Source: Filomicrobium sp. (GTDB taxonomy: Bacteria > Pseudomonadota > Alphaproteobacteria > Rhizobiales > Hyphomicrobiaceae). Taken from it: a stretch of DNA of 42,038 nucleotides. The position numbers and the translations under genes were made by a program. Each line of letters starts with the position of its first letter. The first letter of the stretch is position 1. Shown here one piece after another: positions 24,814 to 30,616 of this stretch. The stretch lies in contig NZGY01000158.1 of NCBI GenBank assembly GCA_002689605.1, forward strand, positions 20,991-63,028, read 5' to 3'. Below the pieces are notes generated by a model. The model had not been told where the DNA came from. It searched no databases and saw only the letters and a list, made by a program, of their open reading frames with translations.

Positions 24814-25023
24814 TAGTCGCCTGTGGCTTGCGAAACCACCCTAACCAATTGAATGAATTCTGCTTTTCCCAAGAACCTTTGACTGGGCATACTGATTAAT
24901 CCAGTATTCACTGAGGCTGTGCAATTGGTGCATACGTAGAAAACTTAGATTGACTGTCCCGATTCCAGAGATTTTTGCTCCAATCATGAACCTTTCCCGA
25001 AATCACGGCGACCTACTCAACGG

Positions 25024-25614
25024 ATGGCGCCGAAACAGCGCCGAGACCTGACGATGAGCGGACCATCAGACACCGATCTCATCAAACGTATCGCCAACCA
25101 GGACCAGACTGCGGTCGAAGTTCTGTATGGGCGATATCAGGTCCGGGTGTTCCGGTTCATCCTGAGGTTGGTCAAATCCGAGGCTGTTGCCGAGGAACTG
25201 GCCAACGAGGTGTTCATGGAGGTTTGGCGCAATGCATCGCGCTTCGAAGGACGATCATCGCTGTCGAGTTGGATTTTGGGCATCGCCCACAATCGCTCTA
25301 TCAGCTCGCTGCGTAAGCGGCGTGAGTCCGAAATGGATGACGATGCAGCGGGCGCCATTCCTGATGATGCAGACAACCCGGAAGTCGTCGCACAGAAGAC
25401 CGACAAAGGTGCACTCCTTAGGGCGTGCATGGAGCGGCTCTCAGACGAGCACAAGACGATCATTGATCTCGTTTACTATCACGAGATATCGATTGCCGAA
25501 GTGTCCGAAACGATCGGTATCCCACAGAACACCGTCAAGACGCGCATGTTCTATGCGCGGAAGAAGTTGTCAGAATTCTTGATGGAGGCAGGTGTTGACC
25601 GCGGCTGGCCATAA
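25024..25614 (+). CDS. ECF-type RNA polymerase sigma-70 factor
   Basis: LIKRIANQDQTAVEVLYGRYQVRVFRFILRLVKSEAVAEELANEVFMEVWRNASRFEGRSSLSSWILGIAHNRSIS region 2 and IAEVSETIGIPQNTVKTRMFYARKKL region 4; alternative start at 25054. Confidence 0.93.
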   Translation: MAPKQRRDLTMSGPSDTDLIKRIANQDQTAVEVLYGRYQVRVFRFILRLVKSEAVAEELANEVFMEVWRNASRFEGRSSLSSWILGIAHNRSISSLRKRRESEMDDDAAGAIPDDADNPEVVAQKTDKGALLRACMERLSDEHKTIIDLVYYHEISIAEVSETIGIPQNTVKTRMFYARKKLSEFLMEAGVDRGWP

Positions 25615-25657
25615 TTGAACGTAAGATCAAATGGTTGCCGTTGCACACGGAAGCGCA

Positions 25658-26350
25658 ATGACCGATACGATCGAAAAATTCTCCGAGCGCGAAGAGATTG
25701 AAATGCTCTTGCCATGGTACGAGTCCGGCACACTTGATCCTGCCGACTTCGAACGCGTGGAACGCTATCTCGAGGCACATCCTGAGATGCAATCACAGCT
25801 TGAGCTTGTCGGGGATGAGCGGTTTGAAACGACCATTGCCAACGAGATGCTGGGTGCTCCATCACCAGGTGCGCTCGACAAACTGCGCGCATCCATTGCA
25901 GCTGAAACGCCTGCACCATCTCGCCTTGCTAGTGCCGGCAAGAGCATTTGGCAGGAAATTGCAAACCTATTCACAAGCCCGACTCCTCGTGCCGTGCAGT
26001 TTGCCGGCATCGCGGCCGCGCTGGTTCTGATGCTTCAGGCCGGCGTGATCGGTAGCCTCTGGCAGACGCCAACGAGTGGTGGTGCTCCGCAAGGGACATA
26101 TGCAACCGCCAGCGGTGAAGAAGGCAAAGGCTTCAGCGTGATTGTGCGATTTGCACCGACGGCCACGACTGATGCAATCGCAAAAGCCCTCAGCCCCCTG
26201 AGGGGTCAGATCATTTCTGGTCCTAAACCAGGCGGCATGTTCGAAGTCAAATTTGAGCTGGAAAAAGACAGTAAAGAAGCTCGCACTGCTGTAATCGAAC
26301 AACTCAAGTCGAACAAAACATCAGTCTTGCTCGTTTTGCCGAAGGGTTAA
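25658..26350 (+). CDS. Membrane anti-sigma factor-like protein with a C-terminal extracytoplasmic domain
   Basis: Directly downstream of the ECF sigma; EEIEMLLPWYESGTLDPADFERVERYLEAHPEMQSQLELV anti-sigma-like N-terminus; TM FAGIAAALVLMLQAGVIGSLW; C-terminal alpha/beta domain. Confidence 0.8.
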   Translation: MTDTIEKFSEREEIEMLLPWYESGTLDPADFERVERYLEAHPEMQSQLELVGDERFETTIANEMLGAPSPGALDKLRASIAAETPAPSRLASAGKSIWQEIANLFTSPTPRAVQFAGIAAALVLMLQAGVIGSLWQTPTSGGAPQGTYATASGEEGKGFSVIVRFAPTATTDAIAKALSPLRGQIISGPKPGGMFEVKFELEKDSKEARTAVIEQLKSNKTSVLLVLPKG

Positions 26351-26478
26351 CCTTCCTTCGCGATTATCTGGTAAGATTTTTTCTGTTATGATGGAGAATA
26401 TTCTGTCGTATTGATCAGCGAACGTATGTTTTGCAGCACAATACGGTAGCCCAGGCCCATTTAACGAAAGTGAAGGCC

Positions 26479-28401
26479 ATGCGTCAGCTCAAAGCCATTA
26501 GTTTCAGTGTTTTCGTTCTAGTTGCCACTTTGATTTGGCAGGGTAGCGCAATTGCAGCCGTCACAAACCGCACTCCGGACGGCATTGCTGCAGAAAAGAT
26601 CGGCTCAGTAAGCCCCTATCTCAAAATTCTTGAAAGCAAGACTTCGAAAGAGAATTTGGTCCGCGTCGCTGGCGACAACGGCAGATATGGCAAGTCCGGC
26701 GGTCGAAGCGGTGGCGGCGGCGTCGCGATTGGCGTCGGCATCGCCGTTGGCATTGCTTCTATCAGCGCCATCCAACGGCAGAAAGAGGCTGAGCGACGCA
26801 AGAAGGCGCGCGATCGCCGCCGTGCCCGCGCAAAAAAAGCTCGGGAGAAGAGGCGCCAGCAGGCTGCGCGCAAAAAGAAGCGCGAAGAACAACGCCGCAA
26901 GGCCGCCGCCAAGCGTAAGCGTGAGCAGGCTAAGAATCGCCGTCTCGCTCGTGAACGCGCACGCAAAGCACGTGAGCGGAAGGCACGCCTGGAGGAACAG
27001 CGTCGTCAGCGTGAAGAACAGAACAGAGTTGCAGACCGCTACCCTAATGACAAAGAAACGGGTCCGGAACATAAGGGTGAAGACCGCAAGCCGGGCGTAC
27101 AAATAGGTATTACGGTACCGGTGGTCCCGCTGCCTGGTGTTGATACGCGTGAACCTGTCATTCCACCTGAAGATGCCAATCCGCAAAGTCCTCCGCGCAA
27201 GTTTGGCCAGAACCCACCTGCGCGCCAGCAGCCGCCATTGCGGTCTCCGCCGCCGGCTCCGGCTGTTGCTGCCGCGAACGATCTTTATTGGCCGCGCGAA
27301 GTCGTTGTCGAAATCGACCGGTTCCAGCCCTCATCGGCCGATGAGGCAATTGCTCAGGACTACAGCATTAGCCGTTTGTCCAGTGACACAAATGCTTTGA
27401 TTGGAAGTCGGTTTGTTCACTACCGGATTCCCGATAGCCGGACAGCTGACAGGGTGATTGCTGCTCTGCTGAACGATAACCGCGTCTTGTTCGCTCAACG
27501 CAACAATCGCTATGTGGTGAACCAGCAGGGCTATACAAAAACTGCAGCGTCTTCAGGCCTGCAGTACGCGCTGGCCAAAATCAGACTGGCAAGCGCGCAT
27601 GCGGTAGCACAAGGCCAAGGCGTTAGAGTTGCCGTTATCGACTCAGGCATTGACCGGGAGCATACGGATCTTAAGCAAGGAATTACTGCTCACTACGATG
27701 CAGCGCCTAAGAAAGGCGTCGCCATCGACGCGCATGGTACGGCTATCGCCGGCATCATTCGCGCCAATGGTCTGGCCAAAGGTGTTGCGCCGCAAGCCGA
27801 CATCCTATCTGTACGCGCTTTCTACAAAGAGGCCAGTCAGAAGTCAGCACATTCGAGCACAATCATCCTGCTTCGCGCGATGGACTGGGTCGCCGCCAAG
27901 CGCGCGAATGTGGTCAATATGAGTTTTGCCGGTGCGAAAGATCCGTCACTTGGACGGGCTATCGACAAGCTGCTTGAGCGCAAGGTTCATCTCGTTGGCG
28001 CAGGTGGCAACAACGGACCTGACGCACCAGAAGCATTTCCAGCTGCGTATGATGGTGTGATTGCGGTTACGGCGACAGACACAGACGACAAGCTCTATAC
28101 AAAGGCCAACCGCGGTAAGTACATCGAACTTGCAGCTCCCGGCGTTGATGTGTTCGTTGTTGCACCTAAGGGCACCCACAGCTTCTCAACGGGTACGTCC
28201 ATGGCAGCGGCGCATGTGTCAGGGCTTATCGCGCTTATCGTGCAGCAACGCCGCAATATCGATCAGCAAGCGGTGAGAAGCATTCTGACCTCCACCGCAA
28301 TAGATCTCGGTAAGCCTGGTTATGATGCCGAGTATGGTGCTGGTCGCGTTGATGCGCAGGCGCTGATACAGGCTGGTACCAAGACGCTGGCTGGCAAGTA
28401 A
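26479..28401 (+). CDS. S8 family serine peptidase (subtilase) with signal sequence, Arg/Lys-rich segment and prodomain-like region
   Basis: VAVIDSGIDREHTDL (Asp), DAHGTAIAGII (His), FSTGTSMAAAHVSGLIAL (Ser); N-terminal FSVFVLVATLIWQGSAIAA. Confidence 0.92.
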   Translation: MRQLKAISFSVFVLVATLIWQGSAIAAVTNRTPDGIAAEKIGSVSPYLKILESKTSKENLVRVAGDNGRYGKSGGRSGGGGVAIGVGIAVGIASISAIQRQKEAERRKKARDRRRARAKKAREKRRQQAARKKKREEQRRKAAAKRKREQAKNRRLARERARKARERKARLEEQRRQREEQNRVADRYPNDKETGPEHKGEDRKPGVQIGITVPVVPLPGVDTREPVIPPEDANPQSPPRKFGQNPPARQQPPLRSPPPAPAVAAANDLYWPREVVVEIDRFQPSSADEAIAQDYSISRLSSDTNALIGSRFVHYRIPDSRTADRVIAALLNDNRVLFAQRNNRYVVNQQGYTKTAASSGLQYALAKIRLASAHAVAQGQGVRVAVIDSGIDREHTDLKQGITAHYDAAPKKGVAIDAHGTAIAGIIRANGLAKGVAPQADILSVRAFYKEASQKSAHSSTIILLRAMDWVAAKRANVVNMSFAGAKDPSLGRAIDKLLERKVHLVGAGGNNGPDAPEAFPAAYDGVIAVTATDTDDKLYTKANRGKYIELAAPGVDVFVVAPKGTHSFSTGTSMAAAHVSGLIALIVQQRRNIDQQAVRSILTSTAIDLGKPGYDAEYGAGRVDAQALIQAGTKTLAGK

Positions 28402-28660
28402 TCGATATTGTCGCAGACCGCGTCAAACGATGCTGGGCTGCGATGGACCGCGACTAGAAACCGGTCCTGAGCCCGTCGCGCAACTGTCTCTCGCTTATTG
28501 TAATTCCTAGATAATTTTGACGACTGCACCAGCAAACAGTCGAACCGTATTCGCTTGGCATTTACGGTAAAAGTGGCCTGCAACCAGGCAATGCTTTCCG
28601 CGCTCACATTTTCTTGCTGAGGCGTGAACCTTTTTGGTGGTCAGGGCTACCCATTTACGC

Positions 28661-28798
28661 AATGCAAGCAAGTGTTTCGGTTTCCTCCCGCCATGAGTTT
28701 GCAGCCACCGACCTAAACACTCCCTCCCCGTCGTGGTCGGCGGTCGCCTGAAGACCTCGGTGGCCAGCTCCCCTCCCCGCCACCGGGTCCATTTTTTC
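28661..28798 (+). ncRNA. Candidate trans-acting sRNA with three hairpins and anti-Shine-Dalgarno loops (alpha-r14/NfeR-like or CcsR/cuckoo-like architecture)
   Basis: HP1 TGCAAGC(28663-28669)/GTTTGCA(28697-28703) with TTTCCTCCCG in the loop; HP2 GACC region pairing 28705-28713 with 28735-28743, with CTCCCTCCCC in the loop; HP3 CGGTGGC(28758-28764)/GCCACCG(28779-28785) plus GACC/GGTC, with CTCCCCTCCCC in the loop, followed by T6. Confidence 0.75.
28753..28797 (+). terminator. Rho-independent terminator, third hairpin of the sRNA candidate
   Basis: GACC-T-CGGTGGC ... GCCACCG-GGTC stem followed by CATTTTTT. Confidence 0.75.
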
Positions 28799-28845: not shown

Positions 28846-29748
28846 TTAGCTCTTTCGCGAACTCACGAACCTGGCCGCCTGCTTCAGGATTTCGGCGCGC
28901 TCTCCGAATTCCGCAACAGCGGCGAGTGCTGATGCCTCTGCGGCAGCCAATTCGGCTCTGGCCTGATCGATACCGAGAATACCAACCAGCGTAGCCTTGC
29001 CAGCATCGGCATCCTTGCCGGTTGCTTTGCCCACGACCTCAGGATCGCCCTCGACATCGAGTAAGTCGTCTGAAATCTGAAACGCGAGGCCGATATGGGT
29101 GCCATAGTCTGTCAGCGCGGCCAGCTGGCTCTCATCGGCGCCACCAAGAATACCACCTGCCTCACAAGCGAACTTGAGAAGCGCGCCAGTCTTCATACCC
29201 TGCATGCGGCGGATGTAAGCATCGTCAGGCTGGGCTGGCTCACCTCGCTTGTCGCTTGAGAGATCAAGGTACTGTCCACCAACCATGCCGACTGCACCGG
29301 AAGCCACGGCCAATCTTGAAACAAGCTTTGATTGTATCTCCGGTGCTGTGCCGCTTACGGGCCGGCTGATAATCTCGAAGGCCAAGGTCAGCAGTGCATC
29401 GCCGACGAGAATTGCAGTCCAATCATCAAATTCAGCCCAGACGGTAGGCTTACCGCGCCGCAACTTATCGTTGTCCATAGCCGGTAGATCGTCGTGCACC
29501 AGCGAGTAGGAGTGCAAGCACTCCAGCGCAGCGGCCGCGGGCATTGCAGTTGCTTCAGCGACACCAAAAAGTTGCGCGCACTTCACAACCAGAAATGGAC
29601 GGAATCGCTTGCCGCCCGCCAACAGACCATGTCGCATCGCATCGGCCAAGCGGGGCGGGACGCTTGGCATACTATCGATCTCGCGCGCAAGCACCGCTTC
29701 GGTCCGATCAGCCAACAATTGCAACTGAGCTACGAATTCTGTTGTCAT
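28846..29748 (-). CDS. ispA: Polyprenyl synthetase, probably farnesyl diphosphate synthase
   Basis: LLAGGKRFRPFLV, LECLHSYSLVHDDLPAMDNDKLRRGKPT (DDLPAMD first Asp-rich motif), FQISDDLLDVEGD (second); start trimmed to MTTEFVAQ. Confidence 0.9.
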   Translation of the reverse strand: MTTEFVAQLQLLADRTEAVLAREIDSMPSVPPRLADAMRHGLLAGGKRFRPFLVVKCAQLFGVAEATAMPAAAALECLHSYSLVHDDLPAMDNDKLRRGKPTVWAEFDDWTAILVGDALLTLAFEIISRPVSGTAPEIQSKLVSRLAVASGAVGMVGGQYLDLSSDKRGEPAQPDDAYIRRMQGMKTGALLKFACEAGGILGGADESQLAALTDYGTHIGLAFQISDDLLDVEGDPEVVGKATGKDADAGKATLVGILGIDQARAELAAAEASALAAVAEFGERAEILKQAARFVSSRKS

Positions 29749-29916
29749 GCCTCTGCCTGTCGTTTGGGCCTGTCGTGTGGGCTGCCGCGTTTTCTCGCAA
29801 GAGCCAGAATGCAGAAGGTCTGCTAAACCAACAAGGCTTCGTCGAGAGCCTGATCGTCTCAGCTGGCAACACATTCTGGCTTTGACTGCATACAGCGGCG
29901 CTTGTAGGCAAACCGC

Positions 29917-30616
29917 GTGGATGACTTGAGAGTAGGTAGTCGGGCTGTGAACTCCGCCGATAGGCAACAACCAACCGGAGCGATCACCTTTGCAACTAGC
30001 TGCCTGGGTGACGCCATTTACTACGGGAGCCGTTTCCTGATCATTGCGGGTACTGTCTTTGTCGGTGCTGTTCTCGTCCTATTGCTCGTTTTTCGATTTG
30101 TTGACCCGCCAGCATCGTCAGTCATGTTGCAGCACTGGCTGAGTGGCCAACGCGTGCAGCAGACGTGGGTCTCGTTGGATCGTATCTCGCCTAATCTGCA
30201 GCGCGCAGTTGTGGCTTCTGCAGATGCCAAGTTCTGCAAACATTTTGGCCTCGATCTGGGTGAGCTAGCATTCGTTATTCGGCAGGCAAAGAAACGGATC
30301 GTTGGATGTGCGCGGCGCAAGCACCATCACAATGCAGGTCTCACGCAACCTTTTCCTGTGGCAAGGCAAATCGTTACTTCGGAAGGGGATGGAAATCGCC
30401 ATCGCTCCAATGATGGAATTCGTCTGGCCAAAGTCGAGAATTCTTGAGGTTTACCTCAATATTGCCGAATGGGGGCCTGGGGTCTATAGAGCGGAAGCAG
30501 CAGCCAATACCCACTTCAAGAGGACCGCCCGGCAACTCAACCGGTCGCAAGCTGCCTTAATGGCGGCGTCTTTGCCCAATCCACGGCTCCGACGGTCAAG
30601 TGCGCCCAATTCGTGA
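29917..30616 (+). pseudogene. mtgA: Monofunctional peptidoglycan glycosyltransferase, frameshifted and lacking the first catalytic Glu
   Basis: Frame 1 SADAKFCKHFGLDLGELAFVIRQA then frame 2 RGASTITMQVSRNLFLWQGKSLLRKGMEIAIAPMMEFVWPKSRILEVYLNIAEWGPGVYRAEAAA; canonical SED is SAD here. Confidence 0.85.

What the first reader, a model, noticed from the sequence alone, without database searches (positions are those of the whole stretch)
28661..28798. Intergenic three-hairpin element carrying anti-Shine-Dalgarno loops: likely uncharacterised trans-acting sRNA
Seen directly: between the subtilase and ispA (convergent genes, no ORF) the plus strand folds into three consecutive hairpins. Each puts a C/U-rich anti-SD-like motif in the loop (TTTCCTCCCG, CTCCCTCCCC, CTCCCCTCCCC). 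The last hairpin is followed by six T residues. Established: alphaproteobacterial sRNAs of the alpha-r14/NfeR type and the CcsR/cuckoo RNAs use repeated anti-SD loops to block translation initiation of many mRNAs. Inference: this is a family member or a new variant, here beside an ECF sigma/anti-sigma/protease locus.
Basis: partly seen in the sequence, partly recalled or inferred. Interest (0 to 1): 0.85.

Follow-up and report, generated by a model that had tools for sequence, protein, structure and literature searches.

The report
ECF-sigma-driven anti-Shine-Dalgarno small RNA (predicted)
Next to a stress sigma-factor operon in a Hyphomicrobiaceae-like bacterium there is what looks like a 138-base regulatory RNA with three loops that can stick to ribosome-binding sites, apparently switched on by that same sigma factor, so the stress response would gain a built-in way to turn protein production down.

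Summary
[quoted passage not shown] The design is far beyond chance: no such array in 1.9 Mb of control strands or 12.6 Mb of shuffles, one loose coding-region look-alike in 3.5 Mb of the same genome, but 26 of 30 known ar14 loci. Membership in ar14 is not supported: 18.6 bits against a cutoff of 58.8, and no loop carries the 'ultraconserved' CCUCCUCCC. No orthologue was found beside ispA or the subtilase in relatives, so covariation cannot be tested. New evidence concerns control. Fifteen relatives carry TGAACCTTT-N13-CGAC (minor variants) upstream of the orthologous ECF sigma gene. A matrix trained on 13 of them, without the window, ranks the window's own sigma-gene promoter first (26.6) and a site at 28624-28653 second (20.9; next 10.7); that site's predicted start is the base of hairpin 1. 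Best reading: a trans-acting aSD sRNA in the neighbouring ECF sigma factor's regulon. It works like NfeR1/CcsR but is a separate locus. Promoter, transcript and targets are computational inference. A 29-aa leaderless ORF is a minor rival.

The parts
28624..28653 (+). Predicted ECF-sigma promoter: G-TGAACCTTT (-35 region), N13, CTACCCA (-10 region)
   Evidence: Score 20.9 with a matrix trained only on ECF-gene promoters of relatives; second in the window after the ECF gene's own promoter, next site 10.7; leave-one-out range of the true training promoters 18.2-30.0.
28660..28797 (+). Predicted sRNA transcript, about 138 nt
   Evidence: Start inferred 6-9 nt downstream of the -10; end at the T6 tract of the terminator.
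28663..28703 (+). Hairpin 1, aSD loop UUUCCUCCCG
   Evidence: z -2.39; weakest of the three.
28704..28744 (+). Hairpin 2, aSD loop CUCCCUCCCC
   Evidence: z -2.34.
28753..28797 (+). Hairpin 3 with aSD loop CUCCCCUCCCC plus U6: intrinsic terminator
   Evidence: z -3.45, 0 of 200 shuffles as stable; T6 at 28792-28797.
24986..25015 (+). Promoter of the ECF sigma gene carrying the same motif (ATGAACCTTT-N13-CGACCTA)
   Evidence: Best matrix hit in the window, 26.6.
25024..25614 (+). ECF sigma factor gene (start probably the ATG at 25054)
   Evidence: Pfam Sigma70_r2 and r4; NCBIfam NF009168 267.8 bits, above its cutoff of 236.
25631..26350 (+). Probable anti-sigma factor
   Evidence: Weak NCBIfam anti-sigma match below cutoff; orthologues follow the ECF gene in 15 relatives at 31-41% identity.
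26431..28401 (+). Subtilase (Peptidase_S8) with a long basic N-terminal part
   Evidence: PF00082, 145 bits.
28846..29970 (-). ispA-type polyprenyl synthetase, convergent neighbour
   Evidence: PF00348, 183 bits.
28662..28751 (+). 29-codon ORF (MQASVSVSSRHEFAATDLNTPSPSWSAVA) at the predicted 5' end: possible leaderless small protein, or chance
   Evidence: no homologue available to test it.

Best explanation
The element is a free-standing, trans-acting small RNA gene of about 138 nt (28660-28797, +). It is transcribed by RNA polymerase carrying the ECF sigma factor encoded 3.6 kb upstream, from a promoter with the same -35 and spacing as the sigma gene's own promoter, and it ends at its third hairpin, which is also an intrinsic terminator. 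The three stems hold CCUCCC-type anti-Shine-Dalgarno stretches in their loops. These would pair with G/A-rich ribosome-binding sites of mRNAs and block translation initiation, so that activation of the ECF response (release of sigma from the anti-sigma factor) brings a repression arm along with its activated genes. Shown by computation: the hairpins, the accessibility of the motifs, the promoter match, the terminator. Inferred: transcription, dependence on the ECF factor, base pairing in vivo, breadth of targets, any need for Hfq.
For: Three hairpins with aSD loops, improbable by chance and shared in design with known ar14 loci. The ECF promoter motif is defined independently by 15 relatives (TGAACCTTT-N13-CGAC with minor variants, same spacing in 14 of 15); the matrix puts the sRNA site second in the window, with 0 sites as good in 1.71 M strand-nt of control DNA and third in 3.49 M strand-nt of its own genome. 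In relatives G065, G007 and G003 the same promoter motif recurs just downstream of the subtilase on the same strand. The predicted start falls at the foot of hairpin 1. The three-CCTCCC pattern is unique in its own 4.96-Mb genome, and BLAST finds no second copy of the element, so it is not a repeat. aSD sRNAs are in use in this lineage: a conserved aSD sRNA downstream of lolA is present in most relatives and in this genome.
Against: No orthologue beside ispA or the subtilase in relatives, so neither covariation nor purifying selection is shown. The -10 is CTAC where 15 of 15 relatives have CGAC or CGTC. No expression data. Hairpin 1 is only moderately stable. The chance tests were designed after the element was seen, although the promoter matrix was trained without it. 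The host is a 168-contig draft assembly with 6.2% estimated contamination.
Confidence: 0.62

Rival explanations
1. A divergent true member of the ar14 (NfeR1 / SmelA075) family or of the CcsR family, derived from the same ancestral gene as the rhizobial copies.
For: Full-length (1-123) sub-threshold alignment to ar14, 18.6 bits, and to ar7, 16 bits; same three-hairpin aSD architecture; literature reports SmelA075/SmelA099 as fast-diverging in the stems, with relatives in Hyphomicrobiaceae (PMC3927594).
Against: 18.6 against a gathering score of 58.8; no genome of its family reaches the cutoff (0 of 40) although 41 of 249 genomes sampled across the order do; no CCUCCUCCC in any loop; CcsR1 not matched.
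Confidence: 0.13
2. A 3'-UTR-derived RNA, or simply the terminator region, of the ECF-anti-sigma-subtilase operon: the terminator ends the subtilase mRNA and the upstream hairpins are processed from it or idle.
For: Same strand, 260 nt after the subtilase stop; no other obvious terminator in between was noticed by eye. sRNAs cut from 3' UTRs occur in Alphaproteobacteria (SorX, UdsC).
Against: A separate ECF-type promoter sits exactly in front of hairpin 1; chance does not explain three aSD loops. It can be true in addition, since the operon would be co-induced.
Confidence: 0.13
3. A short ECF-regulated mRNA for the 29-aa leaderless peptide at 28662-28751, with the hairpins incidental, or a dual-function RNA like Pos19.
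For: ATG lies at the predicted start site and the ORF ends just before the terminator; in relatives the same promoter motif drives small exported proteins; Pos19 of Rhodobacter is an RpoE-dependent coding sRNA (PMC5036791).
Against: No signal peptide is apparent by eye, unlike the relatives' products; 29 open codons after an ATG arise by chance in about a quarter of cases; three accessible aSD loops are not explained.
Confidence: 0.07
4. Chance: a C-rich intergenic stretch that happens to fold, with no function.
For: No conservation could be shown; one loose look-alike occurs in apparently coding sequence elsewhere in the genome.
Against: The independent coincidence of promoter, three loops and terminator in register.
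Confidence: 0.05

Closest known systems
ar14 family (RF02344): NfeR1 / SmelA075 of Sinorhizobium, with the four-hairpin SmelA099 and two-hairpin SmelC201
   Same: Three consecutive hairpins, aSD motif in every loop, variable stems, about 125-140 nt; NfeR1 represses ntrB through these loops (PMC10746234; PMC3927594).
   Different: Loops carry CCUCCC/CUCCC, not CCUCCUCCC; score far below the gathering score; single copy here; NfeR1 is under sigma70 with LsrB and NtrC, not an ECF factor.
CcsR1-4 (RF02791) of Rhodobacter sphaeroides
   Same: aSD-type loops, stress-sigma control, 3' terminator.
   Different: Four RNAs processed from one transcript with the DUF1127 gene ccaF1 under RpoHI/RpoHII (PMC10253847); no DUF1127 gene beside this one; no Rfam match.
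GsrN of Caulobacter and putative homologues
   Same: ECF-type (sigma T/EcfG) sRNA with a C-rich pairing loop, usually encoded close to its sigma gene (PMC5869019).
   Different: One C-rich loop rather than three; general stress sigma EcfG, a different ECF group; activates katG; sequence homology not tested.
Pos19 of Rhodobacter sphaeroides
   Same: sRNA with an ECF (RpoE) promoter in an alphaproteobacterium (PMC5036791).
   Different: 219 nt with a translated 150-nt ORF; different promoter (TGATCC-N15-GCGTA).
lolA-linked aSD sRNA of Hyphomicrobiaceae ('type A', found here; own copy at G000:C35:14132-14240)
   Same: CCCUCCC-type aSD loops, terminator loop CCCCUCCCC, same lineage.
   Different: Different locus, sigma70-like promoter, extra small hairpin; its covariance model R1 does not hit the window element.

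Membership tests
ar14 (RF02344) | Covariance-model score at or above the gathering score of 58.8 bits | tested here: not met
   18.6 bits
ar14 (RF02344) | Three hairpins, the last a terminator | tested here: met
ar14 (RF02344) | Identical, ultraconserved CCUCCUCCC in all three loops | tested here: not met
   Loops UUUCCUCCCG, CUCCCUCCCC, CUCCCCUCCCC; definition from PMC10746234
ar14 (RF02344) | Translational repression by pairing with Shine-Dalgarno sites | not testable with these tools
   Complementarity only
CcsR (RF02791) | Model match | tested here: not met
   No match at E up to 10
CcsR (RF02791) | Co-transcription with a DUF1127 gene (CIN1 locus) | tested here: not met
   Neighbouring genes are a subtilase and ispA
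ar7 (RF02342) | Gathering score of 60 bits | tested here: not met
   16 bits
lolA-linked type A (model R1) | R1 match | tested here: not met
   R1 finds the own-genome copy at 73.8 bits but not the window element; conversely the window model R2 weakly recovers a few type A/B loci at 11.7-20.6 bits
ECF-regulated transcript | Promoter of the cognate ECF factor at the right spacing | tested here: met
   20.9 against a leave-one-out range of 18.2-30.0 for real ones; -10 one base off
ECF-regulated transcript | Loss of expression in an ECF deletion | not testable with these tools
   Needs an experiment

The most novel reading that the evidence does not exclude
A multi-aSD RNA has been captured by an ECF sigma/anti-sigma/subtilase module as a direct regulon member placed right behind the protease gene. 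In related species the same slot behind the subtilase carries the same promoter motif but drives exported proteins, so the slot exchanges protein cargo for a broad translation-silencing RNA. It would be a lineage-specific, independently arisen copy of the NfeR1/CcsR strategy.
Probability: 0.3. Interest if true: 0.65.

Novelty: new variant of a known kind. Interest (0 to 1): 0.56.

Why it matters
Anti-Shine-Dalgarno sRNAs are known in rhizobia and Rhodobacter, and ECF-dependent sRNAs are known elsewhere (MicA/RybB by general knowledge; GsrN and Pos19 from the papers read). A triple-aSD RNA wired to a neighbouring ECF factor would show how a single-input stress regulon gets a repression arm, and how such RNAs arise repeatedly with the same loop chemistry but unrelated stems. 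The promoter motif found here also gives a direct handle on the regulon of an ECF group linked to a subtilase.

Tried and rejected
BLAST of the element in 61 related genomes: only itself plus short chance pieces. aSD motif scan behind ispA in 29 relatives: none convincing. Behind the subtilase in 18 closest orthologues: none. Triple CCTCCC pattern in the family: matches occur about as often as with the reversed control, mostly coding or repeats, so the pattern alone is not informative. Single-sequence covariance model R2 over 103 genomes: only weak hits, a few being type A/B sRNAs, the rest apparently coding. An RpoH-like reading of CCCATTT was considered and dropped in favour of the ECF match. 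Repeat element: rejected, single copy. Rfam at gathering threshold over the whole window: nothing.

Full report
Observation. The plus strand between the subtilase stop (28401) and the ispA stop (28846) was read and folded. Three hairpins follow each other without overlap: 28663-28703, 28704-28744 and 28753-28789. Each apical loop carries a CCUCCC or CUCCC stretch, largely unpaired in the ensemble (0.67, 0.96, 0.91-1.0). Hairpin 3 is followed by six T (28792-28797) and is a good intrinsic terminator. Individual z-scores are -2.4, -2.3 and -3.45.

Chance. A scan for clusters of three CCTCC/CTCCC motifs that all land in apical loops finds only this element in the window, none in 1.93 million strand-nt of other loci, none in 12.6 million nt of dinucleotide-shuffled window, 1 in 3000 local shuffles and 26 of 30 known ar14 loci. 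In 3.5 million strand-nt of the same genome there is one other loose hit, in what looks like coding sequence. The test was set up after the fact, but the margin is large.

Where it lives. The nearest named ispA relative is a Hyphomicrobiaceae MAG at 55% identity. The genome's own genus has one other held genome, a small one whose ispA is 56% identical. Related genomes therefore lie far away, and the spacer is not conserved: no aSD cluster behind ispA in 29 relatives, none behind the subtilase in 18 close orthologues.

Known families. Rfam gives nothing at gathering thresholds. Below threshold, ar14 aligns end to end at 18.6 bits (cutoff 58.8) and ar7 at 16. ar14 is common and multi-copy across the order (41 of 249 genomes over the cutoff) but reaches it in none of 40 genomes of this family. 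The published definition requires CCUCCUCCC in all loops (PMC10746234; PMC3927594), which is absent. So it is not filed as ar14 or CcsR; it shares their design.

Related RNAs in the lineage. Weak ar14 hits in the family led to an aSD sRNA downstream of lolA ('type A') found in most of the 103 genomes searched. It shows strong covariation (20 of 39 pairs with double changes), and this genome has its own copy at G000:C35:14132-14240 (73.8 bits). Its loops (CUUCCCUCCC, CCCCUCCCCC) use the same CCCUCCC dialect as the window element. The covariance model of type A does not hit the window element, while a model of the window element alone weakly recovers a few type A and type B loci. The lineage thus uses aSD RNAs, and the window element is a second one at a different locus.

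The promoter. TGAACCTTT occurs exactly twice in the 42 kb: in front of the ECF sigma gene and in front of hairpin 1, both times followed at the same distance by an ACC-A core. To test this independently, the orthologous ECF-anti-sigma operons of relatives were fetched. Fifteen carry the motif upstream of the ECF gene, with CGAC or CGTC at the same spacing in 14. A matrix from 13 of these, without the window, scores the window's ECF promoter 26.6 and the sRNA site 20.9; the next site in the window scores 10.7. Held-out real promoters score 18.2-30.0. No site as good occurs in 1.71 million strand-nt of control DNA; in 3.49 million strand-nt of the own genome it ranks third. The -10 has CTAC instead of CGAC. 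The start site expected from this promoter is the foot of hairpin 1. In relatives the same motif also stands just behind the subtilase on the same strand (G065, G007, G003), there in front of small or exported proteins, and divergently upstream of the ECF gene in several.

Mechanism. Promoter, three accessible aSD loops and terminator in register make a trans-acting sRNA under the neighbouring ECF factor the best reading (confidence 0.62). The RNA would block translation initiation on mRNAs with GGAGG/GGGAG sites, as shown for NfeR1 in S. meliloti. Transcription, ECF dependence, targets and Hfq need are inferred. ECF-dependent sRNAs near their sigma gene have precedents in GsrN (PMC5869019) and, as to sigma control, Pos19 (PMC5036791); stress-sigma control of aSD RNAs in CcsR (PMC10253847). 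The combination of a triple-aSD RNA with an ECF/subtilase module was not found in the papers read; the literature search was limited to open-licence papers.

Rivals. Divergent ar14 member (0.13), 3'-UTR product or terminator of the subtilase operon (0.13, compatible in part), a coding or dual-function RNA with the 29-aa leaderless ORF (0.07), and chance (0.05).

Noticed in passing
G000:C35:14132-14240 (L235:2442-2550); L205-L234, L237-L241: A conserved aSD sRNA ('type A', about 150 nt, several hairpins, loops CCCCCC, CUUCCCUCCC, CCCCUCCCC) downstream of lolA in most Hyphomicrobiaceae-like genomes; 20 of 39 pairs with compensatory changes, and no Rfam family reaches its gathering score on the copies scanned (L205, L219). 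Looks like an unannotated sRNA family.
   Followed up: partly
L176:1501-1586, L178:1501-1617, L189:1501-1581, L192:1501-1578: Other terminator-ended hairpin RNAs with CCTCC-type loops in relatives (genus g24 and others), some with sub-threshold CcsR1/ar14 scores.
   Followed up: partly
L263:2673 and 3181, L264:2375, L265:1322(-), L310:3295, L311:3997(-), L316:4210(-), L317:3139: The ECF promoter motif TGAACC-N16-CGAC also precedes small or exported proteins (two His-rich repeats in L263; a 'GDAVVTGFSG...' exported protein, divergent from the ECF gene in several), outlining the regulon of this ECF group.
   Followed up: partly
G000:C20, L343:19361(-): Second-best ECF-motif site in the part of the own genome scanned (23.9), 46 nt before an ORF of 78 codons.
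   Followed up: no
window 28662-28751: 29-codon ORF beginning at the predicted transcription start (leaderless) inside the sRNA candidate.
   Followed up: partly
L205:249-312: Sub-threshold match to the drz-agam-1 (HDV-like) ribozyme family, 32.6 bits against a cutoff of 37.
   Followed up: no
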